The position numbers and the translations under genes were made by a program. Below the pieces are notes generated by a model that saw only the letters and a list, made by a program, of their open reading frames with translations, had not been told where the DNA came from and did not search any database. Positions 12,088 through 25,583 of a stretch of 25,583 bases of DNA are shown here, in pieces (position 1 is the first letter of the stretch; each line of letters starts with the position of its first letter). The DNA comes from an uncultured Coprococcus sp. (GTDB taxonomy: Bacteria > Bacillota > Clostridia > Lachnospirales > Lachnospiraceae): NCBI GenBank assembly GCA_900557435.1, contig USSH01000002.1, positions 1-25,583 on the forward strand. Direction: 5' to 3'.

Positions 12088-13083
12088 ATGGACGAGAATA
12101 ATATGAATGGGTTCGGTAATGCGGACGAAGAAGATTATGAGGGAACCACGGTTCTCACAACTCCTGGTGTATATGCATTTTCAAATGCACAGGGGGGAAA
12201 CAATGATAATATGAATAATCCTGGCCAGTTCCAGCAGCCGGGACAGCAGAACCAGGCGGAGCAGCAGAATCAGTTTGGCGGATTCGGCCAGTTCCAGCAG
12301 CCGGGGCAGCAGAACCAGCCAGAACAGCAGAATCAGTTTGGCGGATTCGGTCAGTTCCAGCAGCCGGGACAGCAGAACCAGCCAGAACAGCAGAATCAGT
12401 TTGGCGGATTCAGTCAGTACCAGCAGCCGGGACAGCAGAGCCAGGCGGAACAGCAGAACCAGTTTGGCGGATTCGGTCAGTACCAGCAGCCGGGACAGTA
12501 TGCTCAGCCGGGACCACAGTTTGGAACACCTCAGGGCGGAGATATGAAACCGGGAAAGCAGCTGAACAAAAAGCTGTTTGTAATAATTGGCGCTGCGGTA
12601 TTGGCGGTTATCATCATAGTGGTAGTTCTGATACTTGTACTCTCAGGCGGCAAGGGTTCTGGTGGTGTTGATAAGATTGGTGATAATCTGGCAGCAGCCT
12701 ATGAAAAAGGCGATTCTGATGCTATGGTGGAGCTTATGAACAAGAACTACTATGACGTTTACAACGCGTCGATGGGCGAGAATTATGTTGAAGGCCTGTT
12801 CGATAGAGATGTCAAGGACATGGAAGATATGGTAGGAGATGTCGAGAGTATCAAGATCACGGACAGAATGGAAGACGACAGATATGATAAAGAAGATCTA
12901 GAGGAAGCAAACGCAAGTCTTAGTGCGCTTGGTGTTGACATGGAGATTGATGAGTGCGTCGATATGGAAATGAATATCGAGATAAAAGGATCTGAAGACA
13001 ATGCTGAAGGAGAGATTACATATACTGCAGTTAAGTCAGACGGAAAGTGGTATCTTGTAGACCATGATCTTTATGTAAACTAA
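12088..13083 (+). CDS. One-pass membrane protein with Q/N/G-rich cytoplasmic repeats
   Basis: A 331-residue protein starting after GAAGGAGAG at the ATG 12088. Residues 1-40 are acidic, residues 46-137 are built from four 21-residue Gln/Asn/Gly/Phe-rich repeats (core 'QQPGQQNQ.EQQNQFGGF') plus a partial fifth, and a membrane helix spans about 163-186 ('LFVIIGAAVLAVIIIVVVLI'). The outer C-terminal 145 residues ('DNLAAAYEKGDSDAMVELMN' onward, ending 'GKWYLVDHDLYVN') look like an NTF2/DUF4878-type extracellular fold; that assignment is tentative. Lys residues just before the helix predict the repeats lie inside the cell. The N-terminal composition resembles prion-like or phase-separating segments. 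A good terminator follows, so it is probably transcribed alone. Confidence 0.8.
   Translation: MDENNMNGFGNADEEDYEGTTVLTTPGVYAFSNAQGGNNDNMNNPGQFQQPGQQNQAEQQNQFGGFGQFQQPGQQNQPEQQNQFGGFGQFQQPGQQNQPEQQNQFGGFSQYQQPGQQSQAEQQNQFGGFGQYQQPGQYAQPGPQFGTPQGGDMKPGKQLNKKLFVIIGAAVLAVIIIVVVLILVLSGGKGSGGVDKIGDNLAAAYEKGDSDAMVELMNKNYYDVYNASMGENYVEGLFDRDVKDMEDMVGDVESIKITDRMEDDRYDKEDLEEANASLSALGVDMEIDECVDMEMNIEIKGSEDNAEGEITYTAVKSDGKWYLVDHDLYVN
12223..12497 (+). repeat. 63-bp coding tandem repeat
   Basis: Four full 63-bp copies (12223, 12286, 12349, 12412) and a partial fifth encode the 21-residue Q/N-rich unit. Copies 1-3 are nearly identical at DNA level; copy 4 has Tyr for Phe and Ser for Gly/Asn. The near-identity suggests recent expansion or gene conversion and makes copy number variable in principle. 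Confidence 0.92.
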
Positions 13084-13134: not shown

Positions 13135-13179
13135 CATGTATAAAAAGGGATTTAGTACAATAAAGGGAGGATGGAAATT

Positions 13180-16100
13180 ATGAGAAAGGCAAAAAGATAT
13201 CTGGCCTTGCTGATGGCAGGTGTCCTTGCTGTGACCAGTGTCAATCTGCCGACAGTGTCAGCATATGCACAGGACACAGCTGACAGTGTGGCGGAGGTTG
13301 CGGAGGCAACGCCAGGAGATGCAGACGAGATAATTGATATTGAGGAGGGAATTGTCACAAAGGTCAATATAACAACAGGTGGTCAGAAGATAAAACTCAG
13401 ATTCACCCCTAAAGAGGATGAAAAGTATGTAGTTTATTCCACATCTGACATGGATACTAAGGCGATCCTTTACAACTCTAAGGGTGTGGAACTGACAGAT
13501 GATGATGATTCAGGAGAAGACTCGAACTTTAAGTTTACATACGATATGAAGGCAGGAGAGACCTACATAATAAGTACATATCTCTATTCTTCGGATGCAA
13601 CAGGTTCATTTGATGTATGTGTTGAGAAAAAGGCAATGCCGGTGAGCATGGAGATTACAGAGGAGTGTACACAATTTCTTGAGAAGATAAACTATTCAGG
13701 GTTTGTTGATTTCAAAGCGTCTATAACATATGAGAATGGTGACGAGTTCAGCATGCAGGTTGGGGATGAATCATTTACCGTAGATGGTATACAGTTTTCT
13801 GTATGGATCAAGGATAAGGATGGCAAATATACACACCCGGACGAATACGGATATGAAGATAGTTATACCAGGCCCGGCATTCTTGACAAAGGCACATATA
13901 CTGTGGTGATAACAGATTATGAAGACTTTAAAGATGAAGGGCCCTCTTCAGATGCAAAAGTATGGGGGACATATGACATAAATGTACAGACTGCAGATGA
14001 TTATTTTGAGGGTAGAGATACCATAAGCGATGTTGAGAAGAAAAATTTCAAAACCAGAGATTATGTGTATGAATTCTATAAGTTCTCACCATCAGATACA
14101 GGTAAATATTTATTTGCGGGTACGGATAGCCCAATAAATATGACGGTGTATGACAACAGCTTGAATCCGGTTGCTGCGGTTAGCGTTGAACCCAGCAGGT
14201 ATAATATGGAAAAGGGAAAGGAGTATTATATTGGAGTAGAAGGCTGGCGATATGATACAGATGAAAATAAGTATAATGATACTGATATTATTGCACAGTT
14301 GTATTCTAAACCGGTAAAAGCAGATATTACAATGACACGCACAGAATTTATGTCGGGAATGTACAACGACATAGCTTCAAATATGCAGGTGACTATCCAC
14401 AGGGAGGATGGACAGACAGAGAAGCTGGAACCGCTTGAGTATTATTGGTTTAAAGACAAAAATGACCAGCAGTATGAGTTGTATTATGCGGCCGATGGAC
14501 AGGAATGGAATGCAGAAAGATTCAGCGGGGAACTCCCTGATATACATGGAACATACACCATGTCAGTGGGCTATTATGAGGGTGATGAAGATGTACAGTT
14601 AGGAAGTACCCAGATAACTATTGGTGATATGAATGAACTGACCCTTCCTGTGCTTAAGATTGGGGAGAATAAGCTGCATAGCACCAAAGAGTGGAGTATG
14701 TATGACGATAATGTATATAAATTTACAGCTGAATATGATGGAAAGCTTAAATTAGACCTAGATACATGGTATAAGGTATATCAGATAAAGGATGGTACAA
14801 AGACAGAGTTGTCATCAAGCGATATTTTACAGGCGGGAATGGTGTACTATGTGAAGATCAACTACGGATGGTACGATAATGAAGAAGACAGATATGTCTA
14901 TGATGCCACCGTGAATGTAACACAGACACCATGCATAAGATATTTGAAAGTTTCAAAGGCTCCTGACACACTAGACTTTATAAGGGGAATGAAAGGCAAC
15001 CTGCGTAAAGACGTAGAAATAGAAGTAGATTATAGCAATGGTGAATCTGAGAAGTTAAAGAGTGATGAAGGCAGATTCATAACCAAGTATCGTGAAAGAC
15101 TTGATATGTCGTTTATACATAATGGACAGACGATAGATTTGGGTAATGATATTTATTATGATGAGGATGGCATAGATACATCCAAGCTTCCATTGGGCAA
15201 AGTGGAAGCGGTGGTGACGTCGCCTAACGGTGTAAAGTGCAGTTATGAGCTGAATATACACAAAGTTACAGATTATGTAGCAGACACCCTGAAGCTTGGC
15301 AAGAATGAGATTGATACAAAGGGAAATAAAAATGTGTTCTATGAATTCACACCGGAAACCACAGCGATATATGATCTTGGAGCAAGCATTGTTAAGTTCG
15401 TAGGTCATGAGATCATGTACAATGGTGAGGAGAAGCTGACCTGTGATGCCGAGAGAGTTTCTCAGATGCTGCTTGAGAAAGGTGTCACATATTATCTGGA
15501 CCTCTCTGATGGAGCACAGGATAAGTGGGGAGAGACTGTATACAGTTGGACCATGGATATCCAGATTGCGGAGGACGGAGAATATGCAACTCCAGTCAAA
15601 TGGTCATTCGATCCGGACAATGAAAACAAAAAACTGGTTTACACAGATAAGAATAACCGTGAATCGGTGAAGAATGATATAGACGGCACGGTGATGAACA
15701 TATCATATGATAACGGCACTACCAGAACATGTATTTTACAGTTTGATTATGATTCAGATTCACAGGTAGATAGATTTAAAAATAAGTTAGAATTATCTCT
15801 TCTGAAATATAATGAAGATACTTCAGAGTATGAGGAATATACAGATTACATGCTGCAAAAAGGTCAGTACAAGGTCGTCTACAAGCTTGTGGACAGGAAT
15901 GGTACGGTATATACAAAGCTTGAAAGTCTGGAGACTTCATTTGAAGTATATGATGTCACAGATAGTCCGGATGGAGAGTGGGACATAACTAAGCCGTTGT
16001 ATATAAATAATAACCAGAATCGTTATCTGTATAAAGTGAATGTTCCAGAGAATGTCAGATCGGTAACATTTACATCAAACACAAGTCTGGATGAACTGAA

Positions 16101-19100
16101 TATATTTGATGGCGAGGGAAGCCGCCTCGATTCTGAATGGAATACTGACGATATGTATGAATACTCAAGGAGTATTGATGTCAATGGGAATGATATTTAT
16201 ATAGAAATAATCCCAAGTTCAAAAGTCGATATAAGCAAGCTGACAGTTGTCACCAACGAGGAGGTTGTGGCGGTCAATACAACAATTAAACGAACTGACT
16301 ACATATGCGGTGTAGACAGCATCGCAGAGTCAGACATAGTCACTACGATCGTATACAGAGATGGAACACATAAAGAAGTAGAAGGCCGGAAAAATGGAAT
16401 TGATATAAAACTTCTCGATGAAAACGGAGAATATGCAGGTTACTTTGCAAACAGACTTACAAAATCAGGCAAATACAAAGTAGTGGCAAGTGTAATCGGT
16501 ATGTCAGAGACATGTAAGGTAAATGGAGCAGACATAACTGTATCACCATTTGACGCCTCTGCTGCAACTAAGGTGAAGTTAGGTGAGAAAGTTACAGAGA
16601 GCAATACTTCGGATGTGGACAGTATCAAGGTATATAGTTTTACCCCTGATGAGGATATGGACGTCGCATTTGATTCGTCTGCCAGAGATGTCGGAGTGTA
16701 TACCATGACAGATGGCAATATAGACTACTATGGTGGCATCGGAATTTCTTATCCGGTTGACGCGGGTGTGACATATTATATAGTAGTCAAAGTAAAATGC
16801 GGTTCAAAAGATGTCACATCGGTAAATAAGTATGATCCGGGCAAGGCTATCAGAGAAACGATAATAGCCGGCACAGATAAAGAATTGACCATGTCAAGCA
16901 ATGATGTTGCATATCTTACATTTGTGCCTGAAGTATCAGGAGTGTATACAATATACATCGATGGTGATAAAAAAATAGATCCTTATGTAGAATTATTTAG
17001 AGATGGTGATCATGTTGTTTCAAGTGATGACTGTGAAGATGATAAGAAATTCAGCATGACTGCAGATTTTGATAAGGATGTTGAGTATGAGTTTGTGATA
17101 AATGTTCGCAGAGCGGGTACATTTAATGTTTCATTGAAACATGTGGAGAATGACAAAGAGATATCGTCAGTCAGATTCCTGGATGATACATTTGAAGCGA
17201 CAAGATCGGGATCGGAGGATTATGTAAGTGTATCTGGTGATATAGAGATTATTTACGATGACAACACTAGGGGAACGGTATCATATTCATATGGAACTAA
17301 TTACGACAAGTACAACAATGTAATTCAGGGACAGGATGATGAGGAAACTGTAGATGGCAAGGAACAGGCGGTCGTTGAGATAAAATATCGCAACAAGAAT
17401 TCATCAACATGGAGCGATGTATATAAGTTACGCATTGATGTAAAAGAGGATGATCCGGCGATTGTAAAGGAACTTGCAGAGGGAGAGACATTTGACAGCA
17501 GTCTGTCAAGTGATAAAGTGTCAAATTTTATATTTGCACCAGAAAAGACGGGTAAATACGTTATCAACATTACCGCTGATTCAGGAGACGAAGAGAGAAT
17601 AACAGTAACGGGTGATGCTGGTGAAATAATCTATGCCTATAAGTCGGCATACAGTATGAAAAAGGGCATACAGTATAGTATCAAAATAGATACATCTGGT
17701 GATTACAAGATAACTGTGGTAAAGGTATCTGCAATTGCGGATGTGGAGATAGTGTCATTCAAAGGACAGCTGTATAGCGGAATAATCGGATGCTACGGAG
17801 ATGACACACTGGAAGTCAAGGTGACATATGCAGATGGAACAACGGAGACTGTTGCAGGAGGCGGCAGGTTATCTGATGGAAGGACAGTTTATTATGATTA
17901 TAACTGCAACTCATCAGCGGCAGCGATAATCCATGTAGAAGTCGGCGGAGTATATACCTATAAGAAGGTGGCATACTCAGACAAAAATGATATAAAGTCA
18001 CTTGTATTTAAGAATGGAATCTCAACTACAAAGATTCCTAAGCTGGGTGGATCAGAGAAAGTCACAGCAAACCTCTACAAAGTGATAATTCCGGCAAATG
18101 GAAAATATGCTATAGAGTATGGTTCAGACAGAGAGGTACTTATGTCCGGCTTGGGTACCAATTGGTACAATGCGGATGATATACTTGACGACAATCTCAA
18201 AGCCGGTGACGTTTATTATCTCTGCATTCCGTCAGATGCGGGCGTATTCTGTTTTGCACCTGAAAGTGTCCTTGACTGGCAGGTAGTAAAAGCTGCGACT
18301 TGTACAAATGCAGGTTCAAAGAAAAAATACGAGCCGTCACATGGAAAGTATATAACTGAGACAATTCCTGCGACAGGCCACAGTTATACACATTATGTGT
18401 CGGACAATAATGCCACATGCCAGAAGGCGGGAACAAAGACAGCAAAGTGTGATAACGGCTGTGGAAGCAAGAAGGTGATAGAGGATACGGACAAGCCTGC
18501 ATTGGGACATTTGTACAGTGACAAGTGGTCACTTGTAAAGGCGGCAGGCTATAATGTAGACGGTTATAAGGCTCACATATGTACAAGATGCGGTGGTGCA
18601 AGTACAGCAAGAAGGATCGTAAATAAGATTGCTGCGGTTACACTTGCGCAGACAAGCTATGTATACGATGGCAAGGTGCATAATCCGGGTGTAATCGTTG
18701 TGGATTCAAAAGGCAAGCTGATACCTGTTTCCAAGTACAAAGTGACATATTCTAGTAAGAAGGAAGTAGGAAAGGTTGCAGTAAAGGTTACGTTTAAGGG
18801 CGACTATAAGGGTTCTGTAAAGCGTGAGTTTACCATCAAACCGGCGGCAACTTCGATCACCGGTATTCAGAATGTGGCAAACGGAATCAAAGTGTCCTGG
18901 AAGAAATCGTCCAGCGCAGGCGGGTATATCGTACAGAGAAGGACAGGCAATGGAAAATTTGTCAAAGTCAAGACTATAACATCGGCAAATGTACTGTCAT
19001 ATACAGATACCACAGCGAAACGACAGGGAACAGTATATAGCTACAGAGTGGTAGCTTATAAGGCTGTATCCGGAGTGAAATACGGTGCGAGTGCAAGTGC

Positions 19101-19407
19101 AGCAAAGACATATTACTTTGTAAGCGGAACAAAAGTGGCTAAGGCGGTCAATAGCAGAGCTGGAAAAGTTACTGTTTCATGGAACAAAAATAAGTCTGCA
19201 ACAGGCTATCAGATCCAGTATGCAACGAACACTAAGTTCAGTGGAGCAAAGACAGTTATTGTACGATCTGGCAGCAAGACATCGGCAGTCATAGCCAATC
19301 TGAAGAAGAAAAAGTACTACATAAGAATGCGCGGATATAAGAGCGTGAAGGGCACAAATTATTTCTCTGTATGGAGCAGTGCAAAGAACATTACGGTTAG
19401 TAAGTAG
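13180..19407 (+). CDS. Giant exported protein of alternating PPC-like and Ig-like modules
   Basis: A 2075-residue exported protein. The ATG at 13180 is chosen because GGGAGG ends 9 nt upstream; the in-frame ATG at 13171 abuts that site. A signal peptide ends near 'TVSAYAQD' (residue 30). From about residue 45 to 1690 I can trace around nine PPC-like beta modules (recurring 'Y.FTPE.TG.Y...' and 'L..G..YY' patterns) interleaved with about seven Ig-like modules (recurring '.YEDGT...' then 'GTYTV'). Then come a Cys/His repeat (about 1705-1765), a YDG-type Ig-like domain (about 1820-1885, 'YVYDGKVHNPGVIVVDSKGK') and two FN3-like domains (about 1889-2075). There is no protease or hydrolase motif, LPXTG, SLH or C-terminal membrane helix. 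A surface or adhesive role is inference. The C-terminus is paralogous to that of the next gene. Confidence 0.88.
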   Translation: MRKAKRYLALLMAGVLAVTSVNLPTVSAYAQDTADSVAEVAEATPGDADEIIDIEEGIVTKVNITTGGQKIKLRFTPKEDEKYVVYSTSDMDTKAILYNSKGVELTDDDDSGEDSNFKFTYDMKAGETYIISTYLYSSDATGSFDVCVEKKAMPVSMEITEECTQFLEKINYSGFVDFKASITYENGDEFSMQVGDESFTVDGIQFSVWIKDKDGKYTHPDEYGYEDSYTRPGILDKGTYTVVITDYEDFKDEGPSSDAKVWGTYDINVQTADDYFEGRDTISDVEKKNFKTRDYVYEFYKFSPSDTGKYLFAGTDSPINMTVYDNSLNPVAAVSVEPSRYNMEKGKEYYIGVEGWRYDTDENKYNDTDIIAQLYSKPVKADITMTRTEFMSGMYNDIASNMQVTIHREDGQTEKLEPLEYYWFKDKNDQQYELYYAADGQEWNAERFSGELPDIHGTYTMSVGYYEGDEDVQLGSTQITIGDMNELTLPVLKIGENKLHSTKEWSMYDDNVYKFTAEYDGKLKLDLDTWYKVYQIKDGTKTELSSSDILQAGMVYYVKINYGWYDNEEDRYVYDATVNVTQTPCIRYLKVSKAPDTLDFIRGMKGNLRKDVEIEVDYSNGESEKLKSDEGRFITKYRERLDMSFIHNGQTIDLGNDIYYDEDGIDTSKLPLGKVEAVVTSPNGVKCSYELNIHKVTDYVADTLKLGKNEIDTKGNKNVFYEFTPETTAIYDLGASIVKFVGHEIMYNGEEKLTCDAERVSQMLLEKGVTYYLDLSDGAQDKWGETVYSWTMDIQIAEDGEYATPVKWSFDPDNENKKLVYTDKNNRESVKNDIDGTVMNISYDNGTTRTCILQFDYDSDSQVDRFKNKLELSLLKYNEDTSEYEEYTDYMLQKGQYKVVYKLVDRNGTVYTKLESLETSFEVYDVTDSPDGEWDITKPLYINNNQNRYLYKVNVPENVRSVTFTSNTSLDELNIFDGEGSRLDSEWNTDDMYEYSRSIDVNGNDIYIEIIPSSKVDISKLTVVTNEEVVAVNTTIKRTDYICGVDSIAESDIVTTIVYRDGTHKEVEGRKNGIDIKLLDENGEYAGYFANRLTKSGKYKVVASVIGMSETCKVNGADITVSPFDASAATKVKLGEKVTESNTSDVDSIKVYSFTPDEDMDVAFDSSARDVGVYTMTDGNIDYYGGIGISYPVDAGVTYYIVVKVKCGSKDVTSVNKYDPGKAIRETIIAGTDKELTMSSNDVAYLTFVPEVSGVYTIYIDGDKKIDPYVELFRDGDHVVSSDDCEDDKKFSMTADFDKDVEYEFVINVRRAGTFNVSLKHVENDKEISSVRFLDDTFEATRSGSEDYVSVSGDIEIIYDDNTRGTVSYSYGTNYDKYNNVIQGQDDEETVDGKEQAVVEIKYRNKNSSTWSDVYKLRIDVKEDDPAIVKELAEGETFDSSLSSDKVSNFIFAPEKTGKYVINITADSGDEERITVTGDAGEIIYAYKSAYSMKKGIQYSIKIDTSGDYKITVVKVSAIADVEIVSFKGQLYSGIIGCYGDDTLEVKVTYADGTTETVAGGGRLSDGRTVYYDYNCNSSAAAIIHVEVGGVYTYKKVAYSDKNDIKSLVFKNGISTTKIPKLGGSEKVTANLYKVIIPANGKYAIEYGSDREVLMSGLGTNWYNADDILDDNLKAGDVYYLCIPSDAGVFCFAPESVLDWQVVKAATCTNAGSKKKYEPSHGKYITETIPATGHSYTHYVSDNNATCQKAGTKTAKCDNGCGSKKVIEDTDKPALGHLYSDKWSLVKAAGYNVDGYKAHICTRCGGASTARRIVNKIAAVTLAQTSYVYDGKVHNPGVIVVDSKGKLIPVSKYKVTYSSKKEVGKVAVKVTFKGDYKGSVKREFTIKPAATSITGIQNVANGIKVSWKKSSSAGGYIVQRRTGNGKFVKVKTITSANVLSYTDTTAKRQGTVYSYRVVAYKAVSGVKYGASASAAKTYYFVSGTKVAKAVNSRAGKVTVSWNKNKSATGYQIQYATNTKFSGAKTVIVRSGSKTSAVIANLKKKKYYIRMRGYKSVKGTNYFSVWSSAKNITVSK

Positions 19408-19419
19408 GGGGGAACACAT

Positions 19420-22400
19420 ATGGCAAGATTTAGGAAATCAATGGCGATTGCCATGGCACTTGTCATGGCGGGAAGTATGGCATGTATGTATCCTGTAAAT
19501 GCAGGTGCAATGCAACGTGTATACGCCGCTGAAGCCGATGCTGATGCATCGGCTGACGAGAGCCAGACGGCGGATATAGCAGCCTCAAGTGGTCTTGGGG
19601 TTGCTATACATACTCCGGCACAGATAAAAACATATATAAAGAATAGCGGGTCACTTCTGACAGACGAGGTACAGTACAAGACGGCATATTCAGATAAAAC
19701 TCCGTATGATCCGGGCAGTCTTACAGATGAGACGTTGAACAGTGCACTTGCAACGTTGAATATTGTGAGATATATAGCCGGACTCAATTACAATGTTACA
19801 CTGGACAGTTCATATAACGAACAGAGCCAGGCGGCGGCATTGATAAATCAGATAAATGGAATACTGAGCCATTCGCCTACACGACCGGACGGTATGTCGG
19901 ATTCATTGTATTCTCTTGCAAATACCGGATGCGGACACACCAATCTGGCAATGGGATCGGCGAACCTGAATACATGTATAGTCAACAGTTGGATGAATGA
20001 CAGCAGCGCAAGCAATATATCTCATGTAGGACATCGATCATGGTGTCTGAATCCGAAGATGGGTAAGACAGGATTTGGGGCGGCTGGGAATTACATGGCT
20101 ATGTACTCCATGAACTCAAGCAATTCTTCAAACATTAAGAATATTGCATGGCCGGCACAGAATATGCCTGTCGAATATTTCTCAAGCGACAGGGCATGGA
20201 GCCTTTTTACATGCCAGTCTGAGACGTCGAGTTCTGTAAAGGTGACTCTTGAGAGGAAAAGTGATGGTAAGAAGTGGACATTTTCTGAGAGTAGTTCGGA
20301 TGGATATTTCAATGTGTCGGATTATATACACAATGGAACTATCGTGTTCAGACCGGGCGATATAGATGGGTACAACGATGGGGATGTGTTCACGGTAAGT
20401 GTGACCGGAGTAAAGACACCGGTTACCTATACGGTCACATTCTTCTCAATCGGCGAACTTGGACATGTGCATACATTTGATGGAGTGTTTAATTCAACAC
20501 CTGATTTTACAAACATGACGGCAGAAGTATCAGCCAAATGTGACGGCTGCGGCAAGACATTTACAGACTCGGTTGATATAACCATCACATCAAGTGGTGT
20601 GAGCTGCGGATATAGCGGAAGCCTTTGGTATTCATATAAACCCAAATTCGCTGGAAAGACATACTCTGCATCGGCTATGGACAGAGTCACTTCACTGCCA
20701 CACCTGAACGGTGAACCGACATTTACATGGAACGGTGCAGAATGTACAGCAGCGCAGACATGTTCCAGATGTGGGGAGGTAACTACGACTCCATGTACAG
20801 TGACAAGCACCACAACTGCCACATGTACATCGGCGGGAACCACCACATACACTGCGACGCTTGGCAAGTACAGTTCGGTGAAAAACGTGGCATCAACAAA
20901 GTTAAGCCACAAATATACGAATTATATTTCAGATGACAATGCAACTTGCATACATGACGGTACCAAGACAGCAGAGTGCGACTACGGCTGCGGAACAACA
21001 GATACGATCACAGATGAGGGCAGTAAACTAGAGCATAGGTACACCAATTATGTATCAAATGATGACGCTGATTGTCAGCAGGCAGGAACCAAGACAGCGG
21101 AATGTGATTATGGTTGTGGAACCACAAAGACAGTGACCGATGAGGATAACCCACAGAGATCACACAGCTTTACAAACTATGTATCAGATGATAATGCGAC
21201 CTGTGAACATGACGGTACCAAGACAGCAGAGTGCGAATACGGCTGCGGAACGACAGATACGATCACAGATGAGGGCAGTAAACTAGAGCATAAGTATACT
21301 TACTATGTGTCAAACGGTGACGCAACCTGTCAGCAAGACGGCACCAAGACAGCGGAATGCGACTATGGCTGCGGAGCCACAGATACAGTGACGGATGAGG
21401 GCAGTAAACTAGAGCATAAGTATACTCACTATGTGTCAAACGGTGATGCAACCTGTCAGCAAGACGGCACCAAGACAGCGGAATGTGACTACGGCTGCGG
21501 AACGACAGATACGGTGACAGATGAGGGCAGTAAACTAGAGCATAAGTATACTCACTATGTGTCAAACGGTGACGCAACCTGTCAGCATGACGGCACCAAG
21601 ACAGCAGAGTGTGATTACGGCTGCGGGACGACAGATACGGTGACAGATGCGGGAAGTAAGATACCGCACAGTTTCACAAAGTTTGTGTCAAATGATGATG
21701 CAACCTGTCAGCATGATGGAACCAAGACAGCAGAATGCGACTATGGCTGTGGAGAGACAAAGACGGTTGATGATGTAGACAGTCCAAAGAAATCACACAG
21801 CTTCACAAACTATATTTCAGACAACAATGCAACATGTACAGAACGTGGCACAATGACAGCGGAATGTGATTACGGCTGCGGAGAAAAGAATGTCATACTG
21901 GATGAAAACAGCGTGCTTGCAGATCATAAGTACAGTAAATATGTGTCAGATGACAATGCAACCTGCCAGCAAGACGGCACCAAGACCGCAGAGTGTGATT
22001 ATGGCTGTGGAACAACCAAGACCGTGACCGATAAGGGCAGCCAGCTTGAGCATACACCTGTAGGTGAATGGATAGTTACGAGAAAGGCATCACCGGAAGA
22101 AGATGGTGCAATGGCAAGAAAATGTAAAGTATGTGGAGATACCGTGGAGGGTGCGAAGATACCTTCTATAGACAGAATGGTACTTGACTCGACCCGCTTT
22201 GTGTATAATGGAAAGGCGAAGAAGACAGGCGTTATCATATATGACAGAACCGGAGCGGAGATTGATGCATCACAGTACACCCTTAAATTCGAAAAGAATA
22301 CAGCTTCAGGAAGAGCTTCTGTAAAGGCGGTATTTTCCGACGACTATATGGGAACGCTCACAACATATTTTAATATTATGCCAAAGGGTACTTCTGTCAG

Positions 22401-22950
22401 GACACTTGCAAATTCAACGACAGGCGTAAGCATTACGTGGAACAAAGCTGTTGATGGAACCGGCTATTATATATATAGAAGTACAAATGGCAGGACATAT
22501 ACCCAGATAGCTGCAATCAATAAACTTACAACGACAAGCTATACGGATAAAACGGCAAAGACAAACGGAGCAAGATACTTATATAAGGTGTGTGTATACA
22601 GGAAAAATGCATCGCTTATATTAAAGTCATCTTCAAGCGCACCAAAGACCATATATTATGTGACAGCTCCGACATGCAGATCTGCGGCAAACAGCGCAGC
22701 AGGCTCAATCAAGGTTAATTATACCGGAAATACAAAGGCAACAGGCTACCAGATCCAGTATGCGCTGAACACGAAGTTCACTGGAGCAAAGACGGTGACT
22801 GCGGCCGGATATAAGACAACCACCAAGGTTATAACAAAGCTTCAGAAGAATAAAAAGTATTATGTGAGAGTACGCGGATACAAGAAGGTAAAAGGTGTGA
22901 TCTATTATTCAGCATGGAGCGCAGCTAAAAGTGCGGTTGTAAAGAAATAG
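19420..22950 (+). CDS. Exported CAP/SCP-like protein with nine Cys/His repeats
   Basis: A 1176-residue exported protein whose ATG follows GGGGGGAA by 6-7 nt, 12 bp after the preceding stop, so the two genes are co-transcribed. The signal peptide ends near 'GAMQRVYAAEADA'. Residues about 105-235 form a diverged CAP/SCP-type domain ('ALATLNIVRYIAGLNY', 'CGHTNLAMG', 'VGHRSWCLNPKMGKTGFG'). Residues 497-877 hold nine tandem 42-43-residue repeats, each with the pattern H-(K/S)-(Y/F)-(T/S)...'ATC'...'TAECDYGCG'. Then come a final 'CKVCGD' unit, a YDG-type Ig-like domain and two FN3-like domains matching the previous protein. CAP proteins are widespread secreted proteins of mostly unknown function in bacteria. 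The His and three Cys per repeat could bind zinc or form disulfides (inference). No anchoring motif is visible. Confidence 0.88.
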   Translation: MARFRKSMAIAMALVMAGSMACMYPVNAGAMQRVYAAEADADASADESQTADIAASSGLGVAIHTPAQIKTYIKNSGSLLTDEVQYKTAYSDKTPYDPGSLTDETLNSALATLNIVRYIAGLNYNVTLDSSYNEQSQAAALINQINGILSHSPTRPDGMSDSLYSLANTGCGHTNLAMGSANLNTCIVNSWMNDSSASNISHVGHRSWCLNPKMGKTGFGAAGNYMAMYSMNSSNSSNIKNIAWPAQNMPVEYFSSDRAWSLFTCQSETSSSVKVTLERKSDGKKWTFSESSSDGYFNVSDYIHNGTIVFRPGDIDGYNDGDVFTVSVTGVKTPVTYTVTFFSIGELGHVHTFDGVFNSTPDFTNMTAEVSAKCDGCGKTFTDSVDITITSSGVSCGYSGSLWYSYKPKFAGKTYSASAMDRVTSLPHLNGEPTFTWNGAECTAAQTCSRCGEVTTTPCTVTSTTTATCTSAGTTTYTATLGKYSSVKNVASTKLSHKYTNYISDDNATCIHDGTKTAECDYGCGTTDTITDEGSKLEHRYTNYVSNDDADCQQAGTKTAECDYGCGTTKTVTDEDNPQRSHSFTNYVSDDNATCEHDGTKTAECEYGCGTTDTITDEGSKLEHKYTYYVSNGDATCQQDGTKTAECDYGCGATDTVTDEGSKLEHKYTHYVSNGDATCQQDGTKTAECDYGCGTTDTVTDEGSKLEHKYTHYVSNGDATCQHDGTKTAECDYGCGTTDTVTDAGSKIPHSFTKFVSNDDATCQHDGTKTAECDYGCGETKTVDDVDSPKKSHSFTNYISDNNATCTERGTMTAECDYGCGEKNVILDENSVLADHKYSKYVSDDNATCQQDGTKTAECDYGCGTTKTVTDKGSQLEHTPVGEWIVTRKASPEEDGAMARKCKVCGDTVEGAKIPSIDRMVLDSTRFVYNGKAKKTGVIIYDRTGAEIDASQYTLKFEKNTASGRASVKAVFSDDYMGTLTTYFNIMPKGTSVRTLANSTTGVSITWNKAVDGTGYYIYRSTNGRTYTQIAAINKLTTTSYTDKTAKTNGARYLYKVCVYRKNASLILKSSSSAPKTIYYVTAPTCRSAANSAAGSIKVNYTGNTKATGYQIQYALNTKFTGAKTVTAAGYKTTTKVITKLQKNKKYYVRVRGYKKVKGVIYYSAWSAAKSAVVKK
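20908..22050 (+). repeat. Nine 126-129-bp coding tandem repeats
   Basis: Nine in-frame copies of 42 or 43 codons encode the Cys/His repeats. Copies 4-6 are nearly identical in DNA (for example GAGGGCAGTAAACTAGAGCA recurs), while copies 7-9 are more diverged, so the middle of the array seems most recently expanded. Not a CRISPR array: the repeats are long, gapless and open in one frame throughout. Confidence 0.95.
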
Positions 22951-23378: not shown

Positions 23379-23472
23379 ATACTAATATCGCTGAAAGGCG
23401 GTACATCAGGTCACGCACATCAGATGGTGCGGTACTATTTGGAAATAAATTATCAGAGAAAGGAAAGACGAC

Positions 23473-25530
23473 ATGTACGACAAGGTTTCGACTAAACTGG
23501 AATTCGTGAACAGAGAGCAGAAGGTATTGGACTTCTGGAAAGAAAATCAGGTATTTGAGAAGAGTGTTGAAGAGACAAAGGATCTGCCAACATACACATT
23601 CTATGATGGACCTCCAACAGCAAATGGTAAGCCACATATCGGACACGTTCTCACACGTGTAATCAAGGATATGATCCCTAGATATCAGACAATGAAGGGA
23701 CATAACGTAGTCAGAAAGGCCGGATGGGATACACACGGTCTGCCTGTTGAGCTCGAGGTTGAGAAGCTCTTGGGAATCGACGGCAAGGAGCAGATAGAGG
23801 AGTACGGACTGGAGCCATTTATCCAGAAATGTAAGGAGTCCGTATGGAAATACAAAGGCATGTGGGAAGAGTTCTCAGGCAAGGTTGGTTTCTGGGCTGA
23901 TATGGACAACCCATATGTAACATACCATGATGACTTCATCGAGTCAGAGTGGTGGGCACTGAAGAAGATCTGGGATCAGGGACTTCTGTACAAGGGATTC
24001 AAGATCGTGCCTTACTGTCCAAGATGTGGAACACCTCTTTCAAGCCATGAGGTTGCACAGGGATACAAGACAGTCAAGGAGCGCTCAGCAGTAGTAAGAT
24101 TCAAGGTTATCGGAGAGGACGCATATTTCCTCGCATGGACAACAACACCTTGGACACTTCCTTCAAACGTAGCACTCTGTGTAAATCCAGATGAGACATA
24201 CGTGAAGGTTAAGGCAGCAGACGGCTACACATATTACCTTGCACAGGCGCTTGCAGACAAGGTTCTCGGCGGTCTTGCAAAGGAAGCTACAGACGACCAG
24301 GCAGCAGTTCCTGCATACGAGGTTCTTGAGACATACGTTGGTAAGGATCTTGAGTACAAGGAGTATGAGCCACTCTATGAGTGCGTAAAGCCTGTATGTG
24401 AGAGGCAGCACAAGAAGGGTCACTTCATCACATGTGACACTTATGTAACTATGACAGATGGTACAGGTATCGTTCATATCGCACCTGCATTTGGTGAGGA
24501 CGATGCAAATGTCGGAAGAAACTACGATCTTCCATTTGTACAGTTTGTAGATGGCAAGGGTGATCTCACTGAGGAGACTCCATTTGCCGGAATGTTCGTA
24601 AAGGATGCAGACCCTGAGGTACTGAAGGATCTGGACGCAAGAGGACTTCTCTTCGATGCGCCTAAGTTCGAGCATGAGTATCCACACTGCTGGAGATGTG
24701 ACACACCACTTATCTACTACGCAAGAGATACATGGTTCATCAAGATGACAGCGGTAAGAGACAAGCTGGTTAAGAATAATGACACTGTAAACTGGATTCC
24801 GGAGAGCATCGGTAAGGGACGTTTCGGCGACTGGCTGAAGAACGTTCAGGACTGGGGACTTTCAAGAAACCGTTATTGGGGTACTCCACTGAACATCTGG
24901 GAGTGTGAGTGCGGATGCAGACATGCCATCGGATCAAAGGAAGAGCTCCGCTCAATGAGCGACAACTGCCCTGAGAATATCGAGCTTCACCGTCCGTTCA
25001 TCGACGCTGTAACCATCAAGTGTCCTGAGTGTGGCAAGCAGATGCACAGAGTTACAGAGGTTATCGACTGCTGGTTCGATTCAGGATCAATGCCATTTGC
25101 ACAGTGGCACTATCCATTTGAGAATCAGGATATATTTCTGGGTGCCTTTCCGGTGATTGGTTTTACCGGGAAGAAATTGCTGGAGATGGAGTTTATTACA
25201 CCACATACGTCGGGAAGATTCAAAAATCCTAATCCCATCAGCCAGATTAAGGTCAGACCGGATGTAAAATTCGATTTTTGTTTTATTTTGTCGGATGATT
25301 GTTCGGAGGACGGTACAGTGATTGTATCTGCTGAGGAAAAGAAAAAATTGTTCAAACAATTGATTCTGGATATGGGAATGGGCGCCAAAACCCATGTTGG
25401 TTTTGGTCATTTTTCAGAGAGACGACCGATACAGCTTCGGGAGATTGCAGTCAGTCAGCCAAATCGCACGAACAATCGGTACGGACAGTCAAATCGGGGA
25501 CAGAATCAGTACAACAGAGGTAGGAGATAG
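23473..25530 (+). CDS. ileS: IleS N-terminal two-thirds fused in frame to a Cmr6-like C-terminus (chimera)
   Basis: A 685-residue frame starting at the ATG 23473 after GAAAGGAAAG. Residues 1-552 are isoleucyl-tRNA synthetase of the type with 'YCPRCGTPLSSHEVAQGYKT' (the eukaryote-like IleS2 group): 'HIGH' at 55-58, editing-domain 'WTTTPWTLPSN' at 222-232 and 'GTGIVHIAPAFGEDD', 'WDWGLSRNRYWGTP'-like segment, 'CWFDSGSMPFAQWHYPFENQ'. IleS normally runs to about 1040 residues; the KMSKS loop, the rest of the catalytic fold and the tRNA-binding domain are missing. From about residue 553 the sequence changes to 'DIFLGAFPVIGF', 'FITPHTSGRF', 'KVRPDVKFDFCFIL' and the Gly-rich 'GMGAKTHVGFGHF' (635-647), matching the C-terminal RAMP region of Cmr6, then an Asn/Gly/Arg-rich tail. 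The product as written could not charge tRNA-Ile. Real rearrangement or assembly join is undecided. Confidence 0.88.
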   Translation: MYDKVSTKLEFVNREQKVLDFWKENQVFEKSVEETKDLPTYTFYDGPPTANGKPHIGHVLTRVIKDMIPRYQTMKGHNVVRKAGWDTHGLPVELEVEKLLGIDGKEQIEEYGLEPFIQKCKESVWKYKGMWEEFSGKVGFWADMDNPYVTYHDDFIESEWWALKKIWDQGLLYKGFKIVPYCPRCGTPLSSHEVAQGYKTVKERSAVVRFKVIGEDAYFLAWTTTPWTLPSNVALCVNPDETYVKVKAADGYTYYLAQALADKVLGGLAKEATDDQAAVPAYEVLETYVGKDLEYKEYEPLYECVKPVCERQHKKGHFITCDTYVTMTDGTGIVHIAPAFGEDDANVGRNYDLPFVQFVDGKGDLTEETPFAGMFVKDADPEVLKDLDARGLLFDAPKFEHEYPHCWRCDTPLIYYARDTWFIKMTAVRDKLVKNNDTVNWIPESIGKGRFGDWLKNVQDWGLSRNRYWGTPLNIWECECGCRHAIGSKEELRSMSDNCPENIELHRPFIDAVTIKCPECGKQMHRVTEVIDCWFDSGSMPFAQWHYPFENQDIFLGAFPVIGFTGKKLLEMEFITPHTSGRFKNPNPISQIKVRPDVKFDFCFILSDDCSEDGTVIVSAEEKKKLFKQLILDMGMGAKTHVGFGHFSERRPIQLREIAVSQPNRTNNRYGQSNRGQNQYNRGRR

Positions 25531-25537
25531 GAGAAAT

Positions 25538-25583
25538 ATGAAGTCAACAGAGCCTGTATTGATGGCAAAATGTAATCACATAT
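25538..25583 (+). CDS. Start of an unidentified gene (3' end outside window)
   Basis: An ATG at 25538 preceded by AGGAGATAGGAG opens a frame that runs to the window end (15 residues, 'MKSTEPVLMAKCNHI'). It starts 7 bp after the chimeric stop, so it is translationally linked to the Cmr6-like tail. It is too short to identify. Position suggests a further CRISPR type III or accessory gene; that is inference. Confidence 0.55.
   Translation, partial: MKSTEPVLMAKCNHI

What the first reader, a model, noticed from the sequence alone, without database searches (positions are those of the whole stretch)
25111..25530. In-frame join of isoleucyl-tRNA synthetase to a type III-B CRISPR Cmr6-like C-terminus
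Up to 'HYPFENQ' (residue 552) the protein is ordinary IleS. It should continue with the 'FPADFISEAVDQTRGWFY'-like segment and then KMSKS. Instead it continues without a stop into a 132-residue sequence with the order of features known from Cmr6 C-termini: D-x-F-x-x-A-x-P, 'ITPH', 'NP.P...KV.P.VKF.F.F', and the terminal 'GMGAKTHVGFG' loop. Codon style also changes at the join. At the join both families carry a similar D-x-F...F-P string, so a short homology could have guided the recombination, or misled an assembler. Options: a deletion fusing ileS to a cmr operon (needs another IleS), an island inserted into a duplicate ileS, or a chimeric contig end. The closeness to the window end makes the last a serious possibility.
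Basis: partly seen in the sequence, partly recalled or inferred. Interest (0 to 1): 0.85.

Follow-up and report, generated by a model that had tools for sequence, protein, structure and literature searches.

The report
Misjoined contig end: ileS meets cmr6
The apparent hybrid of an essential tRNA-charging enzyme and a CRISPR protein is most likely an assembly error that glued two unrelated genes together at a short stretch both appear to share, close to the end of the sequence.

Summary
ORF 23473-25530 is IleS to residue 555, then a Cmr6 C-terminus (TIGR01898, above its cut-off). Both halves occur intact elsewhere. Native IleS P0020 (cluster of 1,870 sequences) equals the window at 552 of 555 residues and continues normally. 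An ordinary 258-residue Cmr6, P0121 (cluster of 44), equals the window's last 137 residues. Both native proteins read FENQDIF at the join. In two relatives' genomes, native ileS carries the window's 21 bases 25117-25137 without mismatch, and identity ends at 25137. The join is thus a shared word of about 21 bases, a usual smallest k of de Bruijn assemblers (recalled), 446 bases before the window's end. That cmr6 uses the same 21 bases is inferred. The same Cmr6 stretch occurs in another contig behind another species' ClpX. None of 5 genomes of the genus shows Cmr6. The hybrid lacks IleS KMSKS and the first 121 residues of P0121. The open frame follows from the shared peptide. Reads were not available, so a real recombination is not excluded.

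The parts
23473..25137 (+). 5' part of ileS (residues 1-555), Coprococcus type, cut before KMSKS
   Evidence: TIGR00392; 97.9% DNA identity to G002 over 23450-25137; 552 of 555 residues as in P0020; no KMSKS in the ORF
25117..25137 (+). 21-base word encoding FENQDIF: the join; native in ileS, and the same peptide in native Cmr6
   Evidence: 0 mismatches in ileS of G002 and G004; P0121 reads KENIFENQDIFLGAFPV; cmr6 DNA itself not seen
25138..25530 (+). 3' part of cmr6 (with the word: residues 122-258 of P0121) and stop
   Evidence: TIGR01898; identical to P0121 over the last 137 residues
25531..25583 (+). 53 bases after the cmr6 stop, with the open start of another ORF (ATG at 25538, MKSTEPVLMAKCNHI...), probably of the cmr6 donor
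   Evidence: sequence; belonging to the donor is inferred

Best explanation
The window is a Coprococcus contig whose last 446 bases come from another piece of DNA that carries a type III-B cmr operon. An assembler walked from ileS into cmr6 through a word of about 21 bases (25117-25137) that both genes carry, because both proteins read FENQDIF there. Shown: both native proteins, the shared peptide, the exact native ileS word, and the divergence right after it. Inferred: that native cmr6 uses the same 21 bases, that the two pieces come from different organisms, and that an assembler, not a cell, made the join.
For: Intact native IleS in a cluster of 1,870 and intact Cmr6 in a cluster of 44 with 137 identical residues. 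Exact shared FENQDIF, ileS word identical in G002 and G004, similarity ends at 25137. The same Cmr6 stretch (75 identical residues) stands behind a ClpX in P0001, from a 2,063-base contig; that ClpX is 82% identical to G146's and 76-78% to those of the 5 Coprococcus genomes, so it is from another species. No protein with both halves tops the searches: the best row (120 of 7,987 listed) covers 40% of the region, and none of the 21 proteins has IleS in front. 0 of 5 genomes of the genus match Cmr6. The join is 446 bases from the window's end.
Against: The native cmr6 DNA was not found, so its 21 bases are not seen. No reads, coverage or assembler name are at hand, and it is not known whether the window is a whole contig or comes from a metagenome. 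In P0001 the nearest ClpX (G146) reads LLDKD where Cmr6 reads LLDKE, so the exact shared word of that second chimera is not established. Only 5 genomes of the genus were searched.
Confidence: 0.91

Rival explanations
1. A chimeric DNA molecule made in the laboratory (template switching in amplification, or ligation in the library) at the same short word was sequenced and assembled faithfully.
For: Template switching also uses short identities and would give the same letters (recalled). The word and the divergence after it are as described.
Against: Such molecules are usually rare against the native path (recalled); nothing here tests it directly.
Confidence: 0.05
2. A real recombination in a Coprococcus strain at the short identity joined a broken ileS, or a broken second copy, to an acquired cmr operon; the hybrid ORF is a scar.
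For: An exact short identity is also what real short-homology recombination would use; the frame is open and TIGR01898 passes its cut-off.
Against: IleS is essential (established knowledge) and this copy lacks KMSKS. 4 of 5 genomes of the genus have one full-length ileS match and no second; 0 of 5 match Cmr6. No such fusion protein appears among the listed hits.
Confidence: 0.03
3. The hybrid is a working fusion protein, selected for an in-frame link between translation and type III-B defence.
For: Only the open frame.
Against: The frame is kept by the shared peptide itself. IleS is cut at profile position 557 of 861 before KMSKS, and Cmr6 lacks its first 121 residues. No relative with this architecture is listed.
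Confidence: 0.01

Closest known systems
Inter-genome chimeric contigs of short-read metagenome assembly (described in passages of PMC7299287 and PMC9795473)
   Same: Two sources joined at a shared short word, near a contig end
   Different: The word lies in coding frame in both genes, so the false join looks like a gene fusion; reads to prove it are not at hand
Cmr6, type III-B RAMP protein (TIGR01898; P0121)
   Same: Last 137 residues identical to P0121; above the family cut-off
   Different: The first 121 residues of P0121 are replaced by IleS
Isoleucyl-tRNA synthetase IleS (TIGR00392; P0020)
   Same: 552 of 555 residues identical to P0020
   Different: About 500 C-terminal residues, with KMSKS (607 in P0020), are missing
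ClpX-Cmr6 chimera P0001 and IleS chimeras P0002-P0018 of the protein database
   Same: Singleton proteins with a native segment of this IleS or this Cmr6 joined to a foreign partner
   Different: Other partners and other join points

Membership tests
IleS (TIGR00392) | Profile score above the curated cut-off | tested here: met
   629.2 bits against 621.4, but only profile positions 2-557 of 861
IleS (TIGR00392) | KMSKS and the C-terminal half | tested here: not met
   KMSKS absent from the ORF, at 607 in P0020
Cmr6 (TIGR01898) | Profile score above the curated cut-off | tested here: met
   53.2 bits for the whole ORF, 54.4 for the tail, cut-off 51.1
Cmr6 (TIGR01898) | Complete RAMP protein including its N-terminal half | tested here: not met
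   Profile positions 94-194 of 195 only; first 121 residues of P0121 missing
Cmr6 (TIGR01898) | Set in a cmr operon | tested here: inconclusive
   No other cmr gene was seen in the ORF list of the window (by inspection); only 53 bases follow the stop. The relative in G146 lies in a cmr-like operon (by inspection)
Assembly chimera | Both halves native elsewhere and a short exact identity at the join | tested here: inconclusive
   Met for both proteins and for the ileS DNA; cmr6 DNA not seen
Assembly chimera | No reads spanning the join, or a coverage step | not testable with these tools
   No reads are held

The most novel reading that the evidence does not exclude
A Coprococcus strain really acquired a type III-B cmr operon by recombination at a short identity of about 21 bases inside an ileS copy, leaving an ileS-cmr6 hybrid gene and relying on a second IleS.
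Probability: 0.04. Interest if true: 0.45.

Novelty: not a real feature. Interest (0 to 1): 0.06.

Why it matters
It is a worked example of how an in-frame 'gene fusion' can arise in an assembly: a conserved motif of two unrelated proteins (FEN-x-DIF, seen in IleS and in Cmr6) appears to share codons, so the false join keeps the frame open. Surveys of fusions and new architectures in metagenome proteins should look for an exact shared word at the join and for singleton clusters. As biology it would matter only if reads showed the join to be real.

Tried and rejected
The window's own genome: none held. The cmr6 donor's DNA: genome-contig scan with the tail (72 pattern matches, 0 relatives), plasmids (no near match for 23473-25583; 3 records, all Arcobacter, 42.7% identity), viral contigs (no relative, no exact match), and species samples of family, order and class (5 of 397, 11 of 392 and 8 of 391 genomes with a match, the draws overlapping; best 52% identity, G146; one search gave the same 5 of 397). 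The donor was not found. A duplicate ileS in the genus: not found. Codon usage as a test of origin: weak. Papers holding both 'isoleucyl-tRNA synthetase' and 'Cmr6': 0 in one search. No structure was predicted: both halves are cut and the question is the join. One of three searches of the protein database was left unused.

On checking I mended: the claim that P0001 is joined at an exactly shared LLDKE (the nearest ClpX reads LLDKD), the range of identities of other synthetase matches, the count of C-halves with a close partner (7 of 15), and the odds, which the garbled text gave as 0.06 in one field and 0.93 in another; they are 0.91 here.

Full report
What is there. The last long ORF of the window, 23473-25530 on the + strand, has 685 codons. 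NCBIfam sees isoleucine--tRNA ligase at residues 5-552 (TIGR00392, 629 bits, profile 2-557 of 861) and the type III-B protein Cmr6 at 550-647 (TIGR01898, 53 bits, cut-off 51.1, profile 94-194 of 195). Pfam gives tRNA-synt_1 for the first part and only a sub-threshold RAMP match for the tail.

The host of the ileS part. L001, from a Coprococcus MAG, was among the best of the 80 loci (84% DNA identity over its best piece). Of 5 genomes held for its genus, 4 match the ileS part, G002 and G004 at 98%. Against the single-contig genome G002 the window runs in the same order from base 1 to ileS, with several small gaps and one stretch of about 9 kb that G002 lacks; the last match, 97.9% over 23450-25137, stops at base 25137. 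The 105 bases up to that point are identical to G002, and the 446 bases after it are 25% identical to the G002 continuation, i.e. unrelated.

Native forms of both halves. The cluster of P0020 stands for 1,870 IleS sequences; P0020 equals the window at 552 of 555 residues and goes on normally. Native IleS reads HYPFENQDIFEKHFPADFISEA (P0006; G002 and G004). A search of the protein database with the tail found 21 proteins among 42 candidates. The best, P0121, is an ordinary 258-residue Cmr6 standing for 44 sequences, identical to the window's last 137 residues, from F549 on. It reads KENIFENQDIFLGAFPV.

The join. Both native proteins read exactly FENQDIF, so the window is ileS up to and through that heptapeptide and cmr6 from it onward. 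The window's 21 bases there, 25117-25137, occur without mismatch in the ileS of G002 and G004; the other ileS examined have 3 to 6 mismatches (14 rows, several being the same gene held twice). The native cmr6 DNA could not be fetched, so that it shares all 21 bases is inferred. Twenty-one is a usual smallest k of de Bruijn assemblers (recalled). By plain arithmetic (no call), 10^8 distinct bases hold some 2,000 chance pairs of equal 21-mers, 4^21 being 4.4 x 10^12, so such coincidences are expected in a metagenome. Because both genes read the heptapeptide in frame, the join is in frame without any selection.

Other signs of misjoining. P0001, from a 2,063-base contig, has 75 residues (314-388) identical to residues 106-180 of P0121 behind a ClpX. 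The ClpX part is 82% identical to that of G146 and 76-78% to those of the 5 Coprococcus genomes, so the same Cmr6 stretch is attached to genes of two different species in two sequences. There the Cmr6 block begins LLDKE; the nearest ClpX, of G146, reads LLDKD at that place, so a short shared word is likely but not established. In the IleS search, 17 of the 120 listed hits (of 7,987 scored) carry the Coprococcus-type segment 360-555 at 97% or more; 16 of these 17 have a foreign C-terminal part (15 another IleS at 63-69% to P0020, and P0009 an FtsX-like part after GQKMS), each a cluster of one sequence. For 7 of the 15, the C-half is 99-100% identical to another listed IleS whose N-half differs (for example P0107, N-half 82.5%); for the other 8 the best such partner is 78-95%. 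These look like cross-species chimeras at a conserved gene, though real recombination among them is not excluded, and several sit in long contigs.

Could it be real? IleS is essential (established knowledge), and KMSKS is missing here. Of the 5 genomes of the genus, 4 have one full-length ileS match; further matches are at 25-34% identity, as expected of other synthetases; G005 shows no full-length match. None of the 5 has Cmr6, by protein or by TIGR01898, a search that rings in 3 of 14 control genomes. No protein with both halves is among the listed hits, whose length limits (0.55 to 1.75 times the query) would have let a 685-residue fusion into. A real recombination remains possible and needs reads.

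Literature. Passages of two papers (PMC7299287; PMC9795473) describe chimeric contigs arising where genomes share k-mers or are closely related; neither was read whole. One search for papers holding both 'isoleucyl-tRNA synthetase' and 'Cmr6' gave 0.

Verdict. The feature is most likely a misjoined contig end (0.91). Interest is low; its value is as a worked example of a false in-frame fusion.

Noticed in passing
proteins P0002-P0018 (not in the window): 16 of 17 listed IleS proteins with the Coprococcus-type segment 360-555 carry a foreign C-terminal part, each a singleton cluster, several from contigs of 100 kb and more; chimeric assemblies or real mosaic ileS genes.
   Followed up: partly
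window 13654-22910: About 9.3 kb with most of two large surface-like proteins (ORFs 13171-19407 and 19420-22950) is absent from the otherwise collinear genome G002; both ends in the window carry the 9 bases AGCATGGAG, as if G002 lost the stretch between short repeats.
   Followed up: partly
window 21200-22013 and 12225-12480: Internal repeats: a unit of about 42 residues (..HKYTHYVSNGDATCQQDGTKTAECDYGCG..) in ORF 19420-22950 and Gln/Pro/Gly-rich repeats in ORF 12088-13083.
   Followed up: no
protein P0001, residues 389-405: The ClpX-Cmr6 chimera departs a second time from P0121 near its end (VDFSDEVSVIVSAYDKI against DDCSEDGTVIVSAEEKK), perhaps a further join, a variant or a poor consensus.
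   Followed up: no
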